DNA of 64,000 bases from Hoplostethus atlanticus (lineage: Eukaryota; Chordata; Actinopteri; Trachichthyiformes; Trachichthyidae). Positions 78-58,166 of the stretch are shown here, piece after piece. Every line of letters starts with the position of its first letter. Within the stretch, counting starts at the first letter, position 1. The stretch lies in contig JAXDDX010000001.1 in assembly GCA_034670405.1 (NCBI GenBank), positions 172,001-236,000 of the forward strand, in the 5' to 3' direction. The position numbers were made by a program, and so were the translations under genes. The notes beneath the pieces are model-generated. The model was given only the letters and a program-made list of their open reading frames with translations. It did not search any database and was not told the origin of the DNA.

Positions 78-750
78 AACTACCCTTCTCCGTTCTCTAC
101 ACTGGCTCCCTGTAGCAGCTCGCATCCAGTTCAAGACCCTGGTGCTAGCCTATAGGGCAGTAAAAGGAACAGCTCCTTCTTACCTCCAGGCTATGGTCAA
201 GCCTTACACCCCCGCCCGACCACTTCGCTCTGCTGCCTCGAGGCGACTGGTTGCCCCGTCGCTCAGAGGTCCCTGTGGCCGATCTACACGGTCACGGCTC
301 TTCTCTGTCCTGGCCCCACAGTGGTGGAATGAACTCCCCACTGATGTCAGGACAGCAGAGTCGCTGCCCATCTTTCGCCGCAGGCTGAAAACCCACCTCT
401 TCAGGAAACACTACCCTGACCCTTCCTCTTAGCCTTGCCTATTTGTCGTCAATTATGTGTCTGAGCTCTTGTTTATTGGCTCTTGTTTATTTGGTTCACT
501 TATTTGTCTTAGCTCTTGTTTATTTGATTCTCTTATTTGTCTCATTTGTTTAAGATAAAGTAGGTTGCTAACTTATTGCACTCTTACCTTAACACTAGTT
601 ATGCTCTTAGTTGCTTGTTTAGGAAGGAAATGCACTTACGATTTCTGGTGACTAGTAGTTTTCTTGCCTACCTATGTTGAATGCACTTATTGTAAGTCGC
701 TTTGGATAAAAGCGTCTGCTAAATGACTGTAATGTAATGTAATGTAATGT
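78..750 (+). mobile_element. 3' end of an L2/CR1-like non-LTR retrotransposon (5'-truncated LINE)
   Basis: Bases 78-432 stay open and encode the C-terminal end of a LINE reverse-transcriptase polyprotein, with the familiar fish motifs LHWLPVAARIQFK, APSYLQ, WNELP and FRRRLKTHLF before a TAG at 430. An AT-rich 3' UTR follows. The element closes with the tail GTAAGTCGCTTTGGATAAAA (about 691-710) and a TAATG-type pentamer run near 731-750. 5' truncation is usual for LINE copies made by target-primed reverse transcription. The same tail recurs elsewhere in the window. Assignment to the L2/CR1/jockey group rests on remembered family features; the exact clade is not certain. Confidence 0.8.
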
Positions 751-8257: not shown

Positions 8258-11200
8258 GGCCCTGTTTAGACCTGGCATTAACATCCGATTTGGGCGATCA
8301 GATCTCAAGTTCACACCTCTAAGTACGTCCGTTTACACCCGGCATTAGAATGCGTCTGTGATCGCCTCGAGTGATTCGGATCTCACTTCCCCGCTCTATA
8401 TGCAAATAAACACGTACATCATCATACCAGTTAGCCTGATAACATATCAATATCAATATCGGCCAATTATGACAGCGCTGTCGCTTAACCAGAGGACGTC
8501 AGTTGAGTAGGCGGTCCTTCACTGCGATCCAGAACGCATCGCGTGCACATTGCTAAGAGGATGTGGTCATATCGGTTCTAGACCACCTCCGAATGTGGTC
8601 TGATAGTACAGGCATTTTGTGAGAAAAGAGGGGAGAACCTCCCACAAATTGCAACAGAAAATCTCTCAACTGTTTATTACTCGTAAAGGTCTCCTATATG
8701 ACACATAAAAAGTCTTAAGACATCCAAGTGGTGGAAAGTATTTTTTTTATCATACCCTGGTAACATGTTTTTTCTTCCAAAAATAATATTTTAAGGCTTT
8801 AAAATTTTAAAGCTTAGTATACTTTTATACAAGGCAACATAAATTGGCAGTAATGAACATAAATGTAGGCACTGATTAACAAAAATTTAAAACAATATTA
8901 TTAAAATATCACTTAAAATATCACTTTTATGTTACTTTCAAAATATTTGTGACTGGTAAATTGGCACTTATCAACATGTTGGCACTGATGAACATAAACT
9001 TAAAGATGTTAACTTTTAAGTAAAACTTAAACATTGCTGGTCATCATCAGTAGGTGCCTGGCTCATCTTCATCGTCTTCATCATCATCTTCATCGCATGC
9101 AGCCTGAGATGAGTTTGCACACCCCAATCCTTTGCAGTTGCTACATGCAACAGAGCACTCAATGTCATGCTTCTTGCATGTGCACCTCAGGCTGCTGCAG
9201 TCTGTCTTGCAGGTGCATCTGATAATGTTGGTTTCAATTATTCTCTCACCGAAATGTTCCTTCAGTTTTGACTGCATGTGTGTGTAGCTATATGCTTGAA
9301 GTCCTGAGCCTTGAAGATTGTCTTCCATCTGGCTAACAAGATCATTGATTGTGATCTGTTCATCATCATTTTCTTTGAGGAAGTTCACAACTTCTAGAAA
9401 GGCTTTGACTCTTTCTTTGTCTTGTGGTCGACCAAGTTTTGTTTTATTGGCCCCAGTTTCGCTGGTCTTATTATCTGCTGACATTCGCTTCTTGGTTCGG
9501 AAATTGACACTGCACACTTGGTGATAGACAGCATCTGCAGCATGCAGGTCATGCATCTGCAGCATGCAGGTCATGCACATGCAGCACATGAGCCTTCACT
9601 GCAGCTGCCCAGTCATCTCCTCTTTCATCACAAGATTTCAAGACTGTGTCCTTGAACTCAACCGTCCTCACTGGGAATACAGGCACATCAGAACTCTTCT
9701 TCTTGGTACCAACATGCACTGACCTCCCACAGAACAGACAGTTTCTGTCATAATGGAACTCTTTATCAGCTGAGCGTAGAACACGGCTGTCAATTTCTGT
9801 ATCACATTCTTTTTATTGTTGCTTCTCCTTCAGCGTTTTTGCTATTTGTTGTGGATTAGTATATTTCTTGCGGCAGACTTGATGAACCAGTTCCCCAGGT
9901 GATGTATGGATGTCATCCTCTCGAGATGCACTTGCTCGATTGATGGCGTCACTCCCCTTTTTAGTAAGGGTGGATGTTAGCTGTTCTCCCTCTGCGGGCT
10001 CCTTACAGATGGCACATTGCGGAGGGTCACTGATTGTTGCACTCATAGTGCTAAAATCACCAACAGAAGATGAACATTAATTTTTACAGTACAGTAACTG
10101 AAAACTAACCACTGCAAACTTAACTAAATGCAAATTTTGTCAATTCAACTTGATCATTTTTGCAATAATCCTGTTGCCATGAATATTGCAAATCACTCAA
10201 TTTGTTAACTCTTAAGGTTTTGAACATTACGATGATACAAGGCTACCTAACAAATTAGATGCCATTAAAGCAAACTAGAAATATCATAGTAAGAGTCTGT
10301 CTCTCTATGTTATGCATATCAAGCTAATCACTTATGTCAACAACACAATCATACCACATACAGTACTGGTAGCTAGCTTAGTTAGCTAGCTAGTGTTAGC
10401 TAAATATAAAGCAGGCTAATTTGATGGTACATGATAATAACACATACTCTTTCACACAACAGTTATGAATGTGCAGATAATATATTGTTGAAATATATTA
10501 ATTTGATGACACTTACAAGATAATACATGTATCAGATCATGCTGTGTAAAATAATATCCCTGAGTGGTGACACTAATGATATTGGAAGCATGGTCCACAG
10601 TAAATGTATACCTGACAGTGAGAGTTGATAAGAAACAAAGGTTCCTATGAGATTTCATAGGAAATGCATGCAGGTATTTTTGACCCACTTATGGAAGCTT
10701 GGGCTAGTAATACAAAAACTATAATTACTTAAAAAGAATAAAAGGTAAATAAAAAAATGTAAATGGTCTGAAATCATTTTTAGGAATACCTGGAATATGA
10801 AATGATAAAAACCTTTCATTGCAACAAAACAAACCCACCAGGTCATTTTGACCCACTTACCTGTATGCATCTATGGGAATTTCCTTTTACACATGCATTG
10901 TACTGCATCAAATTCCATGTCTCCTTTAAACAGTTTCTGGTTGACTGTGGACAGCACTGAACCCTTTGTGTGATATCAGACAAGAAGACATGCATAAAAA
11001 CATTTTTTATAATGAGCGTCAATGGAAAATTGGGGCATCACGAATTTGAGTATTTTTCAATATTTTCCACCACTTTGATTTCTTAAGACTTTTGATATGT
11101 TATGAAGGACATATCTATGATATTAGAACAGTTGAAAGATTTTCTGTTGCAATTTGTGGGAGGTCATATCGTATAATGCCTGTACTATGAGTGATGCGAT

Positions 11201-12084: not shown

Positions 12085-13906
12085 AAGATAGATAATGATT
12101 TTTATTGTTTTTTTCCCCCGAAGACAAAAATTTCCAAAGTATACAAGAGTGGATTGTCATTAAATGGTTGCTAGCTATGTCACTGTAAACAAAAAAACCC
12201 TAAAGCTATCACAAGAAAAACAACTGAGAAATATACAGAAAAATATACCTCTGAGAAAATCAATATCTTGACATTTCCTAACAGCTTATAGTCAGGGCTC
12301 AATCAGTAGCAATGAAGACTCATGATCTAGACACATGCAAGAGATAACACCCCCCGCCCCACACACACACACATCACTGTATCTCTGAGGCGCAGAGCTC
12401 TCAGTATGGCTGGTATGGGGAATGTCAATCAATCAATCAATACAGACCATACTAGTTTAGGTTGCTCAGAGTTTCAGTAGGACCTGAACCGACGGTCTGT
12501 CAGACACAGAATGGATTCTTTGGCGTTTTGTTCAGACTACTAAAAACCTGGAGGTGCACCAGGACCCCGCCCACGCTTACTTGCATATAAACACCTGAAG
12601 TGTTTGTTAGGATTTTGATTTTTTTTAAATCCCTCCCATAATGGGCTCGTTTCCCCACATAGCATGAGTCCGGGTCTGTATGGGAACAATGTGGAAAACG
12701 GACCTGTTCCACAGTAAGACTGGAGAGTAAAAACAACATTGCACTCTTTCTCTTAGGCACAAAAAGCCCCGTTTTAAAGGAGCTTTCCACCGGAGCCGGG
12801 TAGTCCTGCCATACTGGGCCCTGGAGGGCTGGTAGTGGATTCATACATACAGCTTCTGTATATCTGCACACTTTATTGCCAATTACGTATAACTGGAGTG
12901 TTTCTCTTAAATCCTGATCATCTTTTAAACCGGCCGCTATTCAACTTCATGACCTTGAAAAACAATAAAGTGGAATGGGAAAACAGTTGAAGTTCTTCTG
13001 ACCAACTCCCTTCACGTCACCTCAATAACTCACCGCCAGCTTGACAGGCTGATTGCAGCATTGCTGGTGGCGTCGGGAGACAGCGAGGAGGCGAGGAGGC
13101 GTCGCCCTCAGAGAGCTGGCAGCTTCTCTGTTGCAACATTCAACACAAGGATCGCCTCTTCGCTTTGACACGTCAGGAGAGACCAGCAGGACGTTTCCAC
13201 ATCTGCCAGGTGACTCCGATTAGATCGTTGTGGGCAAGAAGACAGACCGCGGGCTCAAACGCCCGGTGAGTGACGTGTGCTGGAATGATGCCTTGATATA
13301 CATTTCAACAAGATGAGGAAAATAAATTTTTACATTTCTTAAATGCGCTTTAACATTAAATGTAACAGATTAGCCTTTATATCACAAAGCAAAACAGCGA
13401 ATCTTGTTGACCAAACCGAACCCATGATAATACCTCCTACCAAACTAGACATAACCACCCACATTTACAAAGCTTGCTTTGTACAGAATGTACATGGACA
13501 AACCAAAGTCTCTTACAATAGGTGGAAGCTGTCCGAGGAGAGATATGCTGACTTTTGTAAAAACACCACCTTCGCCAGAACGTCAGACAGTTCGTTGTCT
13601 TGTCGAGGGCAGCACAGACAAATAGGAAAAAAAGAAATGAATCAAAATCCCACGATGTGACGGCTTAGTTCAAGCGTCGGCATCACACGGAGATCCTATC
13701 GTCCCCAAACGCCCCCGTGTATCACAAGTCTACAAAAAATGACGCCTCCCGGTCAGCGATGAAGGTCTGGGGAGTTCGGGTGAGAGGGGGAGTTGAGGCA
13801 GGTTCGTCTGAGGGAGAAAGGGGTGAAAGGCTTTCTGGAGGGGGAGGGAAGATCAGCCGGGTGGGGACGAGGGGGGGGGCGGTGAGGGCTCAGGAGACGG
13901 CGGCGG
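12085..13906 (-). other. oaz2: Probable 3' UTR of oaz2
   Basis: Downstream of the oaz2 stop on the minus strand lie about 1.8 kb without a competing gene. A minus-strand AATAAA (TTTATT at 12101-12106) fits the distal poly(A) signal; another lies at about 12872-12877. Long 3' UTRs are known for this family. The extent is inferred from the signal only. Confidence 0.5.
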
Positions 13907-16622
13907 TCACTCTTCATCGGAGCTGCTGTTGTCCAGACAGTAAACCATGAAGGCCAGGTCTGGCCGGGCCGGTACCATGGGGTTGCCCGGCTTCACCATC
14001 TCGAAGCCCATGTAGTGGAACGTCTTGATGATGGACACTGGTGAGGAACCAGACAGACCAGTCAGACAGACAGACAGACAACTCACTCATGGCACAGTGA
14101 GGCTTCCACATGTTTAAAATCTTCTCTTTAACTCACTAAGTAAGGGTTGTGAACGTTGAGGGCATCATCTAACATGCTACTGGGATCTTCCACATATTAA
14201 AAAGTTAAAATAAAGTCTTACATCGATCCTCTCTGCTTTTATCGAACCACAGGAACACGTAGTTGACTTTGAGCTTCTCCTCAGCAAACTCCAGCAGAGC
14301 GGTGAGGCTGGGGGTGAGATGGATGGAGAGGGAGAGGGAGGGGGAGAGAGAGAGAGAGGGAGGGACGATGACGCACACTGTTTTTTTTTACATAAGCACT
14401 GCAACTTTACATAATAGTGCAGTGGCAGCTGCGGTGCTCGCTGCCGCCCGGCTGGCTCGCGGCCCACGGCAGCCAAGGTGACACCGCCCCGGCGTCAATT
14501 ACAGCTTAACACAAAGCAAGGCCACAGCAACAGAAACCCATTAGCAACACGGCACACCGGTAGCCATGACACACCGCGATAAGCCCCTCAAATACTGTTA
14601 AGACCCAGTTTGTGCAGGGGCTTTGTTTGCTTTTGCTCGTTTAGACCAGATCTGCTCTGTTGATGTGAACGCATTCACTTGAAATGCTTTGGGAACGGCG
14701 GATCTTTTAAAGGACCCCTCAGGCTCGGGGCTCAAGCTAGGACTGTATGAGGGGATCAAATACCAACAAGCTACATGTACATTTAAGGTGAATAACGCCA
14801 CGACTATCAGAATAAACCTGGCTAGCCAATAGAAACTGCTTTCCAGACTGGGTTAATACAAAGCTGACTGAATGAGAGCCAGTGAAGGTGGTACGAAGAT
14901 GGCAGCCAAACAGCCACTGAGCTCGTGCTGGAGATTTGTAATCTTCATACATGACTGTGGATGTTTTTTTCCAATGTTCCTCCCTAAAAAGGATAACAGT
15001 GGTCCAGTCCTCTTAGTGGTTTTTGTCCCAAGATGAAATCAGGGGAAATTGTTCGTCTGTCATCTCATAATTTTGATGAAACTTGGGGGAATGATGCGTC
15101 TCACCACTGCAACTTGCGCTGACTGGCCCAAGCAGGTCAAAACAAGGTGACATGTTACCGAGTACTGTTGCCTTGTTCTGTATTGAGACAGCTAGAGGAA
15201 GGGAAGGGATTCAATCCTTGCCCAGCAGGGGGTCTTAACCACTACACAGGCTTACCTCTCTTTGCTCCCCTCGACCAGTGGCCCAGCAGGAATCTCAAGG
15301 AAGAGGCTGTCTGCAGACAGGGCGGTATCCCAGCAGGCCGAGCGGCGCTCGTTCAGCTGGTAGTGGAAGCGGAGGACAGGAGGGTTCCCACTCACCGGAG
15401 CAGCCTGCGTCACAGTCAGCTTCTCATCCTGAAAGATCCATTTACAGTCATCAAGTTTCAAGTGGTTTTGATGTTTTTGAGATGATTTTATTTATTTATA
15501 AAAAAAAAAAAAGAGAAAAAGTCCACACATCTTTTAGTATTTTTACAGTTTCAGACAATAGGAAGGTGGCGACACAGGTAGGGCACAGAGGACACAGGAG
15601 AGAAAGCTTTGATTTGATCTCGGCCATCAGGGTGTCCGGAGACAGGAACCACGACACCACTGGGATCATACAACCAGATTTAAAAAAAGATAACTTGATA
15701 TTAAATGTGAAGTATATGCTTGCTGTGCATATATAAGAGCTGATGTGAAGTGAAATCAGTAAAAGAGGAAGTGGTTGCGATTTCATGTGTAGGGAAGTAG
15801 CACAGAGAAACACATCTGCAGGAGATTTACAAATTCTGAACTTTAAAGCCTCGATCCGCAATTGCAGCCCGGCGCCCCCTGTTGGAACACCGTCGCTCTG
15901 CTTCTGGCTTTATTTACACATTGAGCTACTGGACGGAGGATATTTTCTCCTGTATATTGCTAAGCTGAAAGCATGTGACAGCTAAACAAGAGCTCTGTGT
16001 TAAGGATGTAAACACACATTGATAAAAAAACATGTCAATATTGAAGTACAGCAGAACTGAATATCAGGTTACCGTGGGTTACGCAAGTTAAGGAAGTCCA
16101 TGTACCAAACTTTTTAAATGCGTGACTGTACCTCAGATTTCTAAGGTTGTGACTTTAACCCAGACGACTAGCATCAAAAAGGTTTCTTTTGCTGGTGTTT
16201 AGTACATTGAGTCAGAATGGCCGCCATGTGATGAAACACTGAAGTACCTTAAGTTTTTATAGAGAATCCCATATTCTGACTCTTTCCGTCACAGGCAGTC
16301 AAAACTCACCAAACTATCAATTAGGGATGAAGGCCTTTCTGATTAAACCCCTGATGGCATTGACCCGGTAAATTCTGGTTTTATCATCATTTTTAATTTT
16401 TCTAAATTGGGAAAATGAAATATGACATATGAGCAAAGCCACCCAAGAGCCGATTTCAGTTGAAGAAGAAGAAGAAGACGAAGAAGAAGAAGAAGTAGTG
16501 CTTTGTGGATTTCCTGGAAGGGAAATTGGCATTTTTCTGTCCAGTGTTTTTGCTGCTCATCTCGGCAGTCGATGAGAATCACAATACATTGGGGCCTATG
16601 TCGTCAGGGAGTGTTGGACAGC

Positions 16623-16686
<64 letters not shown>

Positions 16687-16854
16687 GTGTGTGGAGGCCT
16701 CTAACCTTATGTAGTAGCACACCGAGAGACTGATCCCTGACCGTCCCTCGCCCACCCGGGATCTTCAGTTGTGGGTGAGGGGCATCAGGAGCACCACAGA
16801 GGCCCTGGAGCCTGAGGGTTGGAGCCGGGTAGCCTGGACCCCGCTAACCAGGAA
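13907..16854 (-). CDS. oaz2: Ornithine decarboxylase antizyme 2, last four coding exons; needs +1 ribosomal frameshifting
   Basis: Antizyme binds ornithine decarboxylase, sends it to the proteasome without ubiquitin, and inhibits polyamine uptake; polyamines stimulate its own frameshift. Exons on the minus strand are 16854-16706, 15428-15256, 14307-14222 and 14037-13907 (TGA at 13909-13907). The zero frame in the first listed exon ends PGPLWCS then TGA at 16787-16785. Shifting +1 gives [14 protein letters not shown], running in correct phase through [52 protein letters not shown] and LDNSSSDEE, 156 residues after the shift. That matches the antizyme-2 lineage better than antizyme 1 (DEKLTVTQ, EEKxKVNYVF and a C-terminal SDE motif). 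The exon with the start codon lies further upstream (beyond 16.9 kb) and was not identified. Confidence 0.92.
16464..16496. repeat. GAA trinucleotide microsatellite in an oaz2 intron
   Basis: Imperfect GAA/GAC units run from GTTGAAGAAGAAG to GAAGAAGTAG. They explain the serine- or leucine-rich ORFs on the other strand. Confidence 0.85.
16625..16693. repeat. TG dinucleotide microsatellite beside the oaz2 frameshift exon
   Basis: About 34 TG units, with one CG interruption near 16681, end 13 bases short of the 3' edge of exon 16706-16854. On the transcript strand this is a CA run within the intron, just after the donor. Confidence 0.95.
16732..16790 (-). promoter_or_regulatory. oaz2: Programmed +1 frameshift site (UCC UGA) with downstream H-type pseudoknot
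   Basis: On the mRNA strand UCC (16790-16788) is followed by UGA (16787-16785). Three bases later stem 1 begins: CCCUCACCCAC (16781-16771) pairs with GUGGGCGAGGG (16755-16745) with a single A-C mismatch. The loop between them holds GAUCCC (16763-16758), which pairs with GGGAUC (16737-16732) downstream, making an H-type pseudoknot. Family knowledge: antizyme mRNAs use exactly this slippery stop plus a 3' pseudoknot, with higher polyamine levels raising frameshift efficiency. The pairing here was read directly from the sequence; folding energy was not computed. Confidence 0.88.
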
Positions 16855-19800
16855 CTGGATGGGGAGAGACACAGGAAGAGGAAGTCAACTCTAATTTCCT
16901 TTTTTATTCTAGCAACACTCTTACATGATCGGTCTATGGTGACAGGAATATCGTCAGGTCATTGTATTGGTTGCTGTTGATGATCTGGGAACTGAAGCTT
17001 ATTCTACTGTTGCATTCGCTGCATGTTGCTCTGTATAGGAGCGTTAGCAAAATGCCTGACCGTAGGCTAGTGAATAGTTTAATTAATGATTGAAAATAAG
17101 ATTTATTGAACATATGTTTATTTTCCTTTCCGTTACCGACATTTTATAACAATAAAGTCCACTGGAGGCCGTACTTTCAATGCTTGGTTTGAAGATCCAG
17201 CATTCACTGTGACTGCTGAATGAAGACACACTAATAACTGCCAGCTTGCCAAACTAAGCTGTATGGCCGCTGCTGGTACGACGCCTCCAAAGCCTTTTTA
17301 GTCCATCCAATATTTCAATAGTGAGAGTCATTGAAGCGACCAAACGTAACCAGTCTCTATCCTGGCAGAACAACTCTTCTAAAAGCCAAACGCCTCTGTT
17401 GCTGCTCCACCAGGACATTTATACTTTTATTGCACAAAAACAACTTTCATCTGGACCACAAATGGATGAGTAAACACGGCGGTGAACGGAGGCATTCCCT
17501 CCATCGTCGCAAAACGCTCAGCCCCATTTTAACCCAATTAAGCCTTACACCGTAAATAGCAAACATAACGCGCTCGTGGCAGCAGCTCACCTCCCCGCGG
17601 CATCGAGGACAGCCGGAGGGACTCAAAGGGATCCAACAGATGAGCAAACGCCATAATCACGTTATGCCATTTCCTACTACAAAGTCAGAGAACTATGATA
17701 GTTTATCCAATCATCAAATCAAACTGAACTTGGGACAAAGTGTGTAAAACAAGTCACCACTGACTCCACTGTGAGTGATCTAGTTAGGTTTTCCTCCGCC
17801 GGCTGTCAGTGGACCAGTTAGACGGGCCTGCTTGGTTTCACATAACTTATTCTTAACTTAGTCTAATTCAGTCACGTGACCTCCCGTGCGGCTCACGATC
17901 AACAGACAAAGAACAGAATCAACGCCCATATGGAGGTGGGGACAAGCTCTGCAATGTATTTCATTACTCCTGGCAAAAGGCATTCACACGCTGCAGGTTC
18001 GTGACCACCCTCCGATGCAGACAGAATTGAGGCATGTGACTTCAGAGTTTCATACGGGTTGGGCATGTCGGAGAGGCCATGTATCACAAACAAGCACATG
18101 GTCTGCCAACACCTCTGCAAATAGCTTGCGGGGGTTTGGGAACACACATCTTGAGCGTTTTAAATTACAGCCCAACATTTCAGACAAGCCGTAATGATAG
18201 CCAGCCAGCGAGGGGGGGGGTCTCATTCACAGCCACAAAAGATAATGAATCCTTTTCTGAAGCATTTCTCCAAGCAGACTCTCCTCCAGTTTTTATTCTC
18301 TTTTTGGCTAGAGGCCTGTTGATGTTTTGTTTCAGGTGAAAGACGCGGCACCACTTAAATTTCCTCTACTGACTGCCCATTGAGTCTGCAGTCTTTCTTT
18401 CGAAAGCAGACATCACCCCCGATTCTGCGTCAAGAAGCGTGCAGAATGGAAGGAAAAACTTCTGTCTGAAACCGTATCAGGTAGACCGACCAGTTTGGTG
18501 GCAAATGTTTTGGTTTAAAACACGCACGTCACGGGGTGTGTCACAGAGGAGGGTCGGCAAAGTTAGTCGCCCTGTTTTGTTGAGGAGGAGCTCCAGGACA
18601 GTTGCCCTGGCAACCTGACAGGTAACCCCCGACAACCTGATCTGCATAGCTACGAGCCAAGAGAGTGAACAGTGGAAAACAAGCTCACTTAGCAGCAGCA
18701 GCAAAAAGATGGCAAAAAAACACTGTATTTCTCTGTCAAAAAACACCGTATTTCTATCAAAAAACACCTTATTTCTCTCCTCCCTGCCTTTGTTCGTCGT
18801 TATTTCTGTGCAGCATTTGAACAGATGCATTACAAAGTGGGAAAACATCAGCGTTTTCTCCCCGGCTCTGATTTCTTTAATTATCACTTCTCTATCATGC
18901 GCGATCATTTTAGGGACACAGGAATATTTTTTTTTACTTCTGCTGTGAAGGCTCTGTGGCTTTGACCTTCACACTCCTTACTACTGGTTGCTTGTAATGC
19001 AATAAGGACATTTGCCAAGATGTCAAGACCTGCTTCTCTTTTCCATCTTCCTATTTAGAGAAAGGAGCCTGTCCTTGATGGAAATGCCAGCTTGTTTTGA
19101 AAGGCAACACTCTCGTCCTGACATTTCAGCCACACTCAAGCACACACCCCATCCCCGGCCCACGATGCCACTCCAGCTGGAGGGCTGCAGCCTGCATGCC
19201 CCCAATAGGCCACGAGGTCACCATGAAAAGAGAATATAGGCCACGTTTTAAAGATGGCTTGATGTCACCCATCAGCAGTCGCCAGCAAAACACACTCGCA
19301 CGCTTGGGCTGTATTAACATGCCGGTGAGATAATAATCATCTGTGTGTTGCAGTAAGATGAATCACCCTCCGATTCCCTTGGAAGGGTGTGTGTTGTAAG
19401 AGGTTGTGCAACTGAAAGAGACAAAGAAGGGGAGAGAAAAATGATTTGACGTACAAATGGTTGCATTGCCAAATTGTTCTTCCTGAGCAGAGTTGTTTTG
19501 ATAACTGATTCAAGTGAATTGTTCCAGGGGATAAACGTCCTGAGACACTATCTGTTGGCTGGTGGACTGCTGGGGCAAAGTTTGGCAGACAGCCAAGAGA
19601 CACACAACACAACCAAAACAGGAAGCCCTCTGGCAGCTCTTCCAAGAAGACCAAAAAAACACCGAAACACCTCCTGACGATAACCTCCCCATCTTGGTAT
19701 TGGAAAGGACTGCACTTAACTCAAATAACCAGCAACCGTCGACGTACAACGAGGTCATTCACCAAAAACTTAATGTTAAAAATGATTTAGGTTGGAGACA

Positions 19801-19990
19801 AAAGCAGCAAGTTGTTGAGTCGTCGGACCTCCTCCAGCCCCTGGGGTTTGGCTCAGCTGCATGTCGGAAAAGATGTCGAGACAGAAACAGGAAAGGCACA
19901 CGTTCTCTGAAACCTGAGTCTGGACACCCCTGTTCCTGCCAAAACACATCGCTCTGACCCCTGGACCCAAGCTGTGAGCGTATGAGGCCG

Positions 19991-19993
19991 ACC

Positions 19994-20036
<43 letters not shown>

Positions 20037-20037
20037 G
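19991..20037. repeat. GACA tetranucleotide microsatellite
   Basis: About eleven near-perfect copies of GACA/ACAG. Confidence 0.92.
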
Positions 20038-20986
20038 GAAACAACAACAACAGCTAAACTAAAGCGCTAGAACGGGAAAATGTTGCAACCTAACATAACA
20101 ATCCTGCACCATTCGCAGGTATTGTACCCAGAGACAACAGAATACTCACATTGAAAGAAACACATAAAATACACACATTAGCCAGATTATTTCTACAGCC
20201 GTTACACCATGCTATCAAAATTAGAGAACGATATATGGAGGTAAATATTCTACACGTAGGAGCTTTAAGACCATTACTGATTAAAGTCAGCACAGTTCTT
20301 GCCACTACGGCAAATTGTAATAACAAATGAAACTTGATGGATGAGCCTGATAGCAAAACAACTCCACAATTCTCTCACTGAGTAGCACAGTAGTTTAGTA
20401 ACACGCCTATTGATTGATGTGAAGACTGAACAGTAAACAACGTCTTCCCATGCCAACAGGAATACGTGTGTGTGCTTGTGTATGTTTGGTACAAAACACT
20501 CTACCAGACACCACCGACTACCCCGCCAGCGCAATCACCTCTAGTGGTTTCTGTACACCGAGTGCACCAATAAAAATGTCGGTCATCTTTCAGCATCTTG
20601 GCGTCTTGCCTGTACTCTGCCAAGTCAGACACGCTGAACTGGCTGAGGTTAAACGCCAGTAGTCAATTGAAAACTGGTTTATTTACATAATGTTTTGTTT
20701 CAGGATCCACCAGGATCCACCAGGCCCAGCTACCTTTGACAAGATCAGCCAATCAGTCAAAAGGTGCATTACTCAGAATTAACCTCAGATTGCTCAAATT
20801 AAGAAATCCATCTGTTCCTGAATTGATTTCCTTTGATGCTCCAGAAGTGAACCAGCAGACGGGAGGGGGAGTCGTGGTTATGTAACCAGGCTGATGTAGG
20901 CCAGTAGATGGCTTCATCTGACAGGACCACAGTCACAGAGCTAGTACACTTACTGCACTGGCTCAGAGCATCAATGGACCTCAACG

Positions 20987-20998
20987 CGCGCACACACA

Positions 20999-21031
<33 letters not shown>
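20987..21031. repeat. CA dinucleotide microsatellite
   Basis: About 20 CA units, with one CT interruption near 21000, after a short CG-rich start. Confidence 0.92.
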
Positions 21032-21034
<3 letters not shown>

Positions 21035-21189
21035 CAGAGTATAGAGCCACAGAACAACAAAAACAAGGCCCACATCTCTGCTGTGTACCACTCAGAAAGG
21101 CAAAACACATCCATGCTAGAGAATTCCCCTTCAAAACATTTGTCTTCCGCCTATTTACTGGCATTTCATCCCATGGAACTATTTTAGTT

Positions 21190-21380
21190 CTATAATAAAG
21201 AAGGATACTATACAAATATCACAGTGCTCATAGGAATATTATGGTGATACCACAGGAGATACAAAATACCATTAAGTAACGTCACTAAAAACTCACTATT
21301 GAGTACCACAGACACGCTATTAGTCACAATGGGATCATATTGGTGATATTATAGTGCAAAATTCACATCAAGGGAATAAT
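21190..21380 (-). repeat. Repeat unit (CTATAATATT type), inverted copy
   Basis: Read on the minus strand this contains ACTATAATATCACC, GTGTCTGTGGTACTCAATAG, TGAGTTTTTAGTGACGTTAC and ATAATATTCCTATGAGCA. The same words occur on the plus strand at 22920-23410, so the two blocks are inverted relative to each other. The family is unknown to me. Confidence 0.65.
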
Positions 21381-21509
21381 AATTGTGTTATCTTGTTTAG
21401 TAGGCCATAACATGGGTAGATTACTAAACGAAATAGTGTTTTTGTAGTAGGTCTTGAATGATTTATGAATTAATTTCTCACAACCGATTAAATCTGCAGA
21501 TCAATCCAG

Positions 21510-21915
21510 AAAAAGCGTGTCCCAACTATGGTTTAAACAGAAAGAAAAACGTGTCCTAACAGGGGTTTACAGGAAATGGCATGTCAAATGGCATGGTTTA
21601 AACAGTAAAGTGTGTCCTAAATGACGTCTACGTGTAAAAATGTGCCCCGAGGTTTAATCAGAAACAAACCTATCCCAACTGGGGTTTGAACACAAAAAAA
21701 ACAACATGTCCTAACTGGGGTTTACACAGGAAACCGTGTGCTAACTGGAGTTTCAACAGAAAAAGGTGTCCTAACTGGGGTGTAAACAGAAAAAAGGGTC
21801 CTAACTGGGATGTAAACAGAAAAAAAGGGTCCTAACTGGGATGTAAACAGAAAAAAGGTGTCCTAACTGGGGTGTAAACAAATAAAGGTGTCCTAACTGG
21901 GGTTTCAGGGGGAAA
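21510..21915. repeat. Minisatellite of about 30-32 bp units
   Basis: Roughly a dozen copies of a unit like GTGTCCTAACTGGGGTTTAA plus ACAGAAAAAA. Copies become more alike toward the 3' side (about 21720-21900), where GTCCTAACTGGG and TGTAAACAGAAAAA repeat almost perfectly. The first copies are diverged. Confidence 0.9.
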
Positions 21916-21941
21916 AAATACAGTAAAGTAGCTTAAGTCAC

Positions 21942-22160
21942 TGGTTCCCAAAGTGGGGTCCGGAGACCTCCAGGGGTCCTTGCAGTAGTTCCCCAGCAAA
22001 ATTAACAATAGTTTAATTTCACTATTATTTATTTTATTTATTATTTAACTACTATTGTTATTTTTTATTCCCCCACATATGGTAGAGAAAGACAACAAAA
22101 CCTTTCTCAGATGGGATTTCATGCGACAAAATCGTATCAAATAGGTTGTAATGTGTTTTT
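21942..22160 (+). mobile_element. Fragment of a hAT-like element, left copy
   Basis: It starts CACTGGTTCCCAAAGTGGGG, a form typical of hAT transposon ends. CCAGGGGTCCTTGCAGTAG, CCCCAGCAAAATTAACAATA and a later CGACAAAATCGTATCAAAT follow. A related copy lies at 60430-60690. No target duplication was established. Confidence 0.5.
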
Positions 22161-22919
22161 GGCATAAAGGATGTTCACCCTCGTCTTGTCTACTGCGATT
22201 TTCAGCATCCAACGTTGTATGCGCACAAATAATAAACAAGGAAATGCCAATAAACGTTGTTGATGTCAGATTCTGATGAAATCTGCACTGTGGGCAACAA
22301 AAATGTTCTCACACTAGAAAAATAGAACTATTTCATTTGAGCAGTTTTTACTTTCAGGCCTATTCACGCGCCTGTGTTGACATGTTGGGGTCCGGGTCGC
22401 TGTCTTGCCGTCAGTGTTTCTGTTCGCTGTTGTTTTCCTGCCGCTTTACGAGCAGACTACAAGAAAAGTTGTGCTCTTGCCAACTAAGCGAGATAAATGG
22501 ACTAAACCGGTGTGCCAAACTGACAGCCCTGAATAAAACTATCACGGCTCTGGAAAATGTGTCTTACCTTTCCTCTGTGTTCAGCATGATAGCCTCGAGT
22601 AAACGGGGAACTTTGTGGTGTTTCTGACAACCAAAATAATGACTATTTAATAGAAGCTCCACAGAAAAGTTCACCATCCGTAAAATAAAAACACCTTATA
22701 GGAGTAAAACCCGGTAGCAGGACTGTATGTAGAGACGATTTTTAACAATATATCTTTATGAAGCTGCGTAGCGACTCTGCTCTGCGGCTGCAAGAAGGGC
22801 TATTTATAACCGCAACAGAGGCATTATGGGTAATCCATCCAGGAAGTAACGTGTAGGACTGTTTACAAGTTTAAAAAAAACACAGAAATTCACCATACTA
22901 TTTCTAAAATCGATAGCTC

Positions 22920-23410
22920 AAATGTGCCTGTGGCACCTAATAGCGAGTGTATAGTTCCCTTATCGTACTTTATGGTAGTTTTTATCTTTTATGGTATCAC
23001 TATAATATTCCTATAATATTCCCATATGGATCTATAATATGTCTGCGGTGCTCAATAATAAGTCTGTAGTGATTTTATTGCACTTCAGGTTACTTTTTTA
23101 AAAATCTCATCTGGTGTCACTGTAACATTTCTAAAATATTGCTATCGGGATCTAAATGGCCCTGTGGTGCTCGATAGTTTGTAGTGACTTTATTGTCTTC
23201 ACTATAACACTCCTATAATATTCCTATAGGGGCCTATAATGTGTCCGTGGTACTGAATAGTGAGTTTATTATGACCTTGTAACACTTACTTAATCTTTTG
23301 TTGTTGTTTTTTTTTAACTCGTATCAATGTATTATTTTGATCAGTTATCACCATCTACTATGACTAACATCCCTATAATATTCCTATTGGATGTGTTCTA
23401 GTTTATAGTT
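22920..23410 (+). repeat. Tandem-like array of the CTATAATATT repeat, plus orientation
   Basis: Three to four diverged units share CACTATAATATTCCTATAAT, CCTATAGGGGCCTATAATGT, GTGGTGCTCAATA and GTAGTGATTTTATTG. It mirrors the single inverted block at 21190-21380. No coding signal. Confidence 0.65.
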
Positions 23411-40595: not shown

Positions 40596-44353
<3,758 letters not shown>

Positions 44354-57549: not shown

Positions 57550-58166
57550 GACTTGGAATTGTTCATGTGTTTGACTCGTTGGAACGCCCACATCCTCAAC
57601 ACCAAGAAGACCAAGGAGCTCATTGTGGACTTCAGGAAGTCCAAAGCCGGCACACACACCCCCATCCGCATCAACAGGACAGAGGTTGAGCGTGTCGCCA
57701 GCTTTAAGTTTCTGGGCGTCCACATCTCCGAGGACCTCTCAACACCTCGACCATGGTCAAGAAGGCTCACCAGCGTCTCTTCTTCCTGAGGAGACTGAAG
57801 AAAGTCCACCTGTCTCCTCAGATTCTGGTGAACTTCTACCGCTGCACCAACGAGAACATCCTTACCAACTGCATCACAGTCTGGAATGGCAACTGCTCTG
57901 TTTCAGAGCGGAAAGCACTGCAGAGGGTGGTGAAAACCGCCCAACGCATCACCGGTACCTCACTCCCCTCCATTGAGTCGGTCCAGCCCAAGCGGTGTCT
58001 GCGTAGGGCGCGCAGCATCGTCAAGGACTCTTCTCACCCCAGCCACAGACTGTTTGCCCACCTCCCCTCTGGGAGGCACTACAGGTCCCTCCGTTCCAGT
58101 ACCAGCAGGCTCAGGAACAGCTTCTTCCCCTCAGCTGTCACTTTGCTGAACTCGTCACCATGGTGA
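57550..58166 (+). mobile_element. LINE reverse-transcriptase C-terminal fragment, frameshifted
   Basis: The first frame encodes LNTKKTKELIVDFRKS and VASFKFLGVHISEDLS, up to about 57745. It then breaks, probably through a small deletion, and continues in another frame with MVKKAHQRLFFLRRLKK, CITVWNGNCSVSERKALQRV, KRCLRRARSIVKDSSHPSH and RLRNSFFPSAVTLLN. These are the end of the RT domain and its C-terminal region in jockey/CR1/Rex-type fish LINEs. The 5' part is missing, so the copy is dead. Confidence 0.85.

What the first reader, a model, noticed from the sequence alone, without database searches (positions are those of the whole stretch)
16732..16790. Complete antizyme frameshift cassette: UCC-UGA, short spacer and a near-perfect H-type pseudoknot
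Stem 1 is 11 base pairs with one mismatch, its loop contains GAUCCC, and GGGAUC lies downstream at pseudoknot distance. Only a +1 shift at UGA connects the short zero frame to the conserved antizyme body. The two parts join exactly at the residues expected (PGPLWCS, then DAPHP). A homology-only annotation would probably call this a pseudogene or start it at the wrong place.
Basis: partly seen in the sequence, partly recalled or inferred. Interest (0 to 1): 0.72.

Follow-up and report, generated by a model that had tools for sequence, protein, structure and literature searches.

The report
Ordinary vertebrate antizyme 2 frameshift gene
This is a normal, apparently intact antizyme gene, probably from a fish, whose ribosomes must skip one base at a stop codon to make the protein; the device is well known, and the only mildly new point is a likely second, upstream start site.

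Summary
On the minus strand, 16790-16732 carries UCC-UGA, a 3-nt spacer and an H-type pseudoknot. Stem 1 is 10 Watson-Crick pairs plus one A·C mismatch; stem 2 is GAUCCC/GGGAUC. It matches Rfam RF00381 Antizyme_FSE at 67.9 bits, E 2.3e-13. From sequence alone I extended it to a five-exon gene (coding part 22677-13907) with GT-AG at 4 of 4 introns. ORF1 stops at the UGA, and skipping one base gives 215 open codons. The body matches solved antizyme 1 (5bwa_B, E 1.1e-44) and Pfam ODC_AZ. The mechanism is textbook: polyamine-stimulated +1 frameshifting. Two qualifications apply. Geometry and folding energy alone would not establish the pseudoknot. A cryptic acceptor at 16811 could in principle bypass the UGA, so "only" is too strong. 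One addition: exon 1 has a second in-frame AUG, 30 codons upstream, whose peptide resembles the antizyme 1 N-terminus. That suggests the two-start architecture described for antizyme 1. No fish relatives could be searched, so compensatory changes were not tested.

The parts
16732..16790 (-). Antizyme +1 frameshift cassette (shift codon to end of stem 2)
   Evidence: RF00381 16787-16732, 67.9 bits, E 2.3e-13; sequence
16785..16790 (-). Shift site UCC-UGA, stop of ORF1
16771..16781 (-). Stem 1, 5' arm (CCCUCACCCAC); 10 Watson-Crick pairs + A-C mismatch
16745..16755 (-). Stem 1, 3' arm (GUGGGCGAGGG)
16758..16763 (-). Stem 2, 5' arm GAUCCC in the loop of stem 1
16732..16737 (-). Stem 2, 3' arm GGGAUC
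22801..22808 (-). TATAAATA, candidate core promoter; no ATG between it and the first start
   Evidence: sequence; function inferred
22568..22677 (-). Exon 1, coding part (predicted): first AUG 22677, second in-frame AUG 22587 (30 codons later), donor AG|GTAAG, phase 2
22588..22677 (-). Candidate N-terminal extension resembling the antizyme 1 N-terminus
   Evidence: local score 46, 0 of 20000 shuffles reach it (best shuffle 43); best of 551 ATG-started open segments of the window
16706..16854 (-). Exon 2 (predicted) with the cassette; CAG|T acceptor, AAG|GTTAG donor
15256..15428 (-). Exon 3 (predicted), antizyme body
14222..14307 (-). Exon 4 (predicted), antizyme body
13907..14037 (-). Exon 5 (predicted), antizyme body, C-terminus, TGA
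12872..12877 (-). First AATAAA after the stop, candidate polyadenylation signal
   Evidence: searched from 13907 down to about 10500; function inferred

Best explanation
An intact vertebrate (probably teleost) antizyme 2-class gene. Ribosomes translate a short ORF1 (59 codons from the first AUG, 29 from the second) up to UCC-UGA. When polyamines are high, a fraction of them slip +1 at the UGA (UCC UGA read as UCC, then GAU), helped by the pseudoknot 3 nt downstream, and go on into ORF2 to make full-length antizyme (215 or 185 aa). Antizyme then binds ornithine decarboxylase and restrains polyamine synthesis and uptake. Shown here: the cassette, the two frames, the predicted intron-exon structure (no transcripts seen) and the protein family. 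Inferred from the family: polyamine control, frameshift direction in vivo, ornithine decarboxylase binding. Inferred from sequence alone: use of both AUGs by leaky scanning.
For: RF00381 match, E 2.3e-13. ORF1 ends at TCCTGA; ORF2 is open only 19 codons upstream, with no ATG. Five exons, GT-AG at 4 of 4 introns, one base skipped gives 215 uninterrupted codons. Protein matches antizyme structures 5bwa_B (E 1.1e-44), 1zo0_A, 4zgy_B, 4zgz_B, the 4 distinct sequences found, and Pfam PF02100 (71 bits, cut-off 24.2). Of two recalled human proteins antizyme 2 scores higher. Human guide and primer sequences printed in PMC10281260 (passages) show the same GAUCCC arm, a 2-nt linker and GUGG in antizyme 2, the whole GUGGGCGAGGG arm in antizyme 1, and an antizyme 2 primer ending CAG|TAG that I read as the intron 1/exon 2 junction, which fits the phase-2 split serine codon found here.
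Against: No RNA-seq, ribosome profiling or orthologous fish sequence was available. Folding energy is not exceptional (z -0.53). L3 is 2 nt shorter than the Rfam consensus, and the consensus' outermost and innermost stem 1 pairs are missing; these are small departures. A cryptic acceptor exists. The OAF paper says mammalian antizyme 1 and 2 mRNAs carry two distinct pseudoknot types; which type this one resembles was not tested.
Confidence: 0.96

Rival explanations
1. Splicing bypass: an acceptor inside exon 2 (exon start 16811) joins exon 1 directly to the body frame, so the frameshift is not needed in some transcripts.
For: 1 of 4 downstream AGs tested joins exon 1 in frame to LKIPGGRG.
Against: Weaker pyrimidine tract (13 of 19 against 16 of 19 for the natural acceptor; fractions 0.68 and 0.84); two other AGs lie upstream of it in exon 2; it would delete the PGPLWCS segment and leave the conserved cassette without purpose.
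Confidence: 0.03
2. Decayed gene copy (pseudogene) in which the frame break is damage.
For: The frames are broken by one base at the UGA, as in a damaged copy.
Against: Introns retained with GT-AG at 4 of 4, otherwise open frame, and the break is exactly at the family's shift site with the whole stimulator.
Confidence: 0.01
3. Same mechanism, other label: the brain-and-retina antizyme AZR described in minnows, or an antizyme 1 copy, rather than oaz2 proper.
For: APGP at codons -8 to -5 equals the Danio 'brain & retina' entry of Table 2 in PMC5009743; the first-AUG extension looks like antizyme 1.
Against: Body and MLNTEES...PGPLWCS are antizyme 2-like. The review says AZR signals seem weaker and that the gene is absent in many other fish, whereas here both stems are intact. 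The OAF paper lists the Danio antizyme types as OAZ1L/OAZ1S/OAZ2, which would place AZR in its OAZ2 class if AZR is the third Danio gene (my inference).
Confidence: 0.2

Closest known systems
Antizyme_FSE, Rfam RF00381 (antizyme frameshift element)
   Same: Full-length match 1-59; UGA, 3-nt spacer, the ten core stem 1 pairs and GAUCCC/GGGAUC stem 2 identical to consensus
   Different: L3 two nt shorter, one outer stem position deleted, A/G instead of C-G at the innermost stem 1 pair
Antizyme 2 (OAZ2)
   Same: 110 of 185 aligned residues identical to recalled human OAZ2; MLNTEES start, PGPLWCS-DAPHP join
   Different: An additional in-frame AUG 30 codons upstream; ORF1 middle part diverged; whether human OAZ2 has such an extension was not testable
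Antizyme 1 (OAZ1)
   Same: Two in-frame AUGs, 30 codons apart here and 34 in antizyme 1 (review PMC5009743); 10 of 24 identities at the extreme N-terminus to recalled OAZ1
   Different: Body and second start are closer to antizyme 2 (89 of 184 identities to recalled OAZ1 from the second AUG, 100 of 214 from the first)
Danio brain-and-retina antizyme (AZR)
   Same: APGP at codons -8 to -5

Membership tests
Antizyme_FSE (RF00381) | Score above the curated gathering threshold | tested here: met
   67.9 bits against 40
Antizyme_FSE (RF00381) | Compensatory changes supporting both stems among relatives | not testable with these tools
   No fish or other vertebrate genomes searchable; pattern scans of viral contigs and genome contigs gave 0 hits
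Antizyme gene | ORF1 ending in a stop at the shift site and a longer ORF2 in the +1 frame without its own start | tested here: met
   on the predicted splice form
Antizyme gene | ODC_AZ domain | tested here: met
   PF02100 E 1e-19; 5bwa_B E 1.1e-44
Antizyme gene | Polyamine-responsive +1 frameshifting and ornithine decarboxylase binding | not testable with these tools
   needs bench work
Antizyme 2 (OAZ2) | Closer to antizyme 2 than to antizyme 1 | tested here: met
Antizyme 2 (OAZ2) | Neighbourhood with RBPMS2 (recalled from the human map) | tested here: inconclusive
   Recalled RBPMS2 RRM gives one match in the window, E 0.30, not significant; an ADP-dependent glucokinase-like gene lies upstream
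Two-start antizyme (as antizyme 1) | First AUG in weaker context than the second, in-frame extension homologous to antizyme 1 | tested here: inconclusive
   First AUG: -3 C, +4 G; second AUG: -3 A, +4 C; extension similarity 0 of 20000 shuffles but E 0.89 in a plain whole-window tblastn; only one reference, recalled, with QRILNSH corroborated by a primer in PMC10281260

The most novel reading that the evidence does not exclude
This antizyme 2-class gene keeps an antizyme 1-type N-terminal extension and two AUGs in exon 1. One mRNA could then make four products (two starts, each with or without the frameshift), including a possibly mitochondrial form of antizyme 2. The two-start arrangement would predate the antizyme 1/2 split.
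Probability: 0.55. Interest if true: 0.3.

Novelty: already known. Interest (0 to 1): 0.13.

Why it matters
It is a clean further case of one of the best-studied programmed frameshifts in animals, so it changes no picture. It does give a complete predicted gene model. It also gives a small testable point: whether antizyme 2 in this lineage has an alternative upstream start like antizyme 1, where a mitochondrial localisation signal is described between the two starts (review passage) and the choice of start is said to determine mitochondrial localisation (title of a cited study, seen in a reference list).

Tried and rejected
Comparators: DNA pattern TGGTGYTCYTGATGYYCCYCACCC in viral contigs (0 hits) and genome contigs (0 hits); exon 3 protein in viral contigs (32 stretches matched a pattern, none confirmed). 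These are viral and prokaryote collections, so the negatives say nothing about fish.

Four weak Rfam matches below gathering scores in 12800-23000 (pestivirus 3' UTR, TUG1_3, DLG2-AS1_2, RFPL3-AS1_1, E 0.031-0.79) were taken as chance. Synteny with RBPMS2 was not found. ViennaRNA in the box has no pseudoknot folding function, so the pseudoknot was scored by parts only: stem 1 alone -18.4 kcal/mol, stem 2 duplex -8.4 kcal/mol. My first gene model began exon 5 one base too early (exon 5 product garbled); this was corrected. The first pseudoknot scan gave the same six hits that one search then printed and compared with shuffles. An earlier count gave 11 of 24 identities for the N-terminal extension; the alignments show 10 of 24, and the report uses 10.

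Literature on two starts in antizyme 2: the searches (of which 21 and 24 returned no paper) showed nothing on it in the titles and abstract openings I saw, nor did the passages. PMC110703 is not held. Of the OAF paper I saw parts 1 and 2 of 4 and passages; of the others passages only. The library lacks most subscription papers, so this is no claim that it is unpublished.

Full report
What was checked. The stated interval 16732-16790 on the minus strand reads UCC UGA, UGC, CCCUCACCCAC, AACUGAA, GAUCCC, GG, GUGGGCGAGGG, ACGGUCA, GGGAUC. The two 11-nt arms pair at ten positions with one central A·C mismatch; GAUCCC and GGGAUC pair perfectly. Rfam's cmscan of the whole window gives two matches at gathering level, one of them RF00381 Antizyme_FSE at 16787-16732, positions 1-59 of 59, 67.9 bits, E 2.3e-13. 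Differences from the Rfam consensus lie in loops and at the ends of stem 1: A/G instead of C-G at the innermost pair, one outer position deleted, two nucleotides fewer before the 3' arm of stem 2.

Chance. The bare geometry is not unique: 5 distinct places in the window (6 raw hits), and 15 raw hits in 20 dinucleotide shuffles, a mean of 0.75. TCCTGA within 12 nt upstream is found at 1 of the 5 places and 0 of the 15 shuffle hits. Without the pseudoknot, 16784-16732 folds at -20.3 kcal/mol, z -0.53, 64 of 200 shuffles at least as stable. So the claim rests on the family match and the coding context, not on energy.

Gene model. tblastn of recalled human OAZ2 finds the body exons, and splice sites read from the sequence give exons 22677-22568 (coding part), 16854-16706, 15428-15256, 14307-14222 and 14037-13907, with GT-AG at 4 of 4 introns. 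The zero frame ends at the UGA after 59 codons (29 from the second AUG). ORF2 extends only 19 codons upstream of the shift, back to a TAG, with no ATG. Skipping one base at the stop gives 215 codons ending in SSSDEE and a TGA. The protein matches the antizyme chains 5bwa_B (E 1.1e-44, residues 60-215), 1zo0_A, 4zgy_B and 4zgz_B and Pfam ODC_AZ (E 1e-19). From the first AUG the scores are 545 and 470, with 110 of 185 and 100 of 214 identities: the extension raises the OAZ1 score and lowers the OAZ2 score, but OAZ2 stays ahead.

Independent letters. Passages of PMC10281260 print human guides and primers. The Az2 guide reads CTGTCGAAGATCCCCGGTGG, that is, the same GAUCCC arm, a 2-nt linker (CG) and GUGG. 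An Az1 guide reads AGGTGGGCGAGGGAATAGTC, which holds the whole 3' arm GUGGGCGAGGG. The Az2 primer ends GCAGTAG, which I read as the intron 1/exon 2 junction; with the recalled MINTQDSS start, this gives the same phase-2 split serine as MLNTEES here. An Az1 primer reads GCAGCGGATCCTCAATAGCCAC, which I translate by hand as QRILNSH, supporting that part of the recalled OAZ1.

Bypass. Of four downstream AGs tried as alternative acceptors in exon 2, one (exon start 16811) joins exon 1 in frame to the body. Its tract is poorer (0.68 against 0.84 pyrimidine) and two other AGs lie before it in the exon. I judge it unlikely, but among those tested it is the one route round the UGA.

Two starts. The first AUG after the TATAAATA (22808-22801) is at 22677, in frame with 22587 and 30 codons before it. 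Aligned from their first residues, its peptide and recalled OAZ1 share 10 of 24 residues without a gap (MVNFSVELLLNSHYF against MVKSSLQRILNSHCF at the start). None of 20000 shuffles reaches the score of 46 (best 43), and it is the best of 551 ATG-started open 30-codon segments of the window, the next scoring 32. In a plain whole-window tblastn this match had E 0.89, so it is convincing only because of its place and frame. The second AUG has the better -3 base (A against C), the first has G at +4. The review PMC5009743 (passages) describes two starts 34 codons apart for antizyme 1, the second favoured, with a mitochondrial signal between. PMC4551804 (passages) says two start codons are usual in most higher vertebrates. 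Whether antizyme 2 was known to have both I could not settle.

Which paralogue, which species. APGP at codons -8 to -5 equals the Danio brain-and-retina antizyme in Table 2 of PMC5009743. [quoted passage not shown] The OAF paper lists the Danio types as OAZ1L/OAZ1S/OAZ2. oaz2 proper or an AZR-like oaz2 copy both remain possible. The OAF paper also speaks of two distinct pseudoknot types in mammalian antizyme 1 and 2 mRNAs; I did not test which one this resembles.

Verdict. Correctly spotted, correctly interpreted in essence, ordinary in kind.

Noticed in passing
window 22588-22677 (-): In-frame upstream AUG with an antizyme 1-like N-terminal peptide in an antizyme 2-class gene.
   Followed up: partly
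window 16626-16693 (-): A 68-nt (CA)n-type microsatellite begins 12 nt after the exon 2 donor; CA repeats near donors can affect splicing (recalled).
   Followed up: no
window 40599-43308 (-): Pieces of an ADP-dependent glucokinase-like gene: three ORFs match PF04587, E 9.4e-54, 7.6e-23 and 1e-18.
   Followed up: no
window 57708-58163 (+): ORF matching Pfam ALKBH8_N (E 4.6e-12); it looks like the tail of a LINE reverse-transcriptase ORF (recalled association).
   Followed up: no
window 678-732 (+): UnaL2 LINE 3' element, Rfam RF00436, 65.5 bits.
   Followed up: no
window 21670-21905 (-): Repeated 'cccagttaggacac'-like units in intron 1, a degenerate tandem array seen by eye.
   Followed up: no
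window 9050-9595 (-): 182-aa cysteine-rich open frame without a Pfam match at E 0.01, perhaps a transposon fragment (guess).
   Followed up: no
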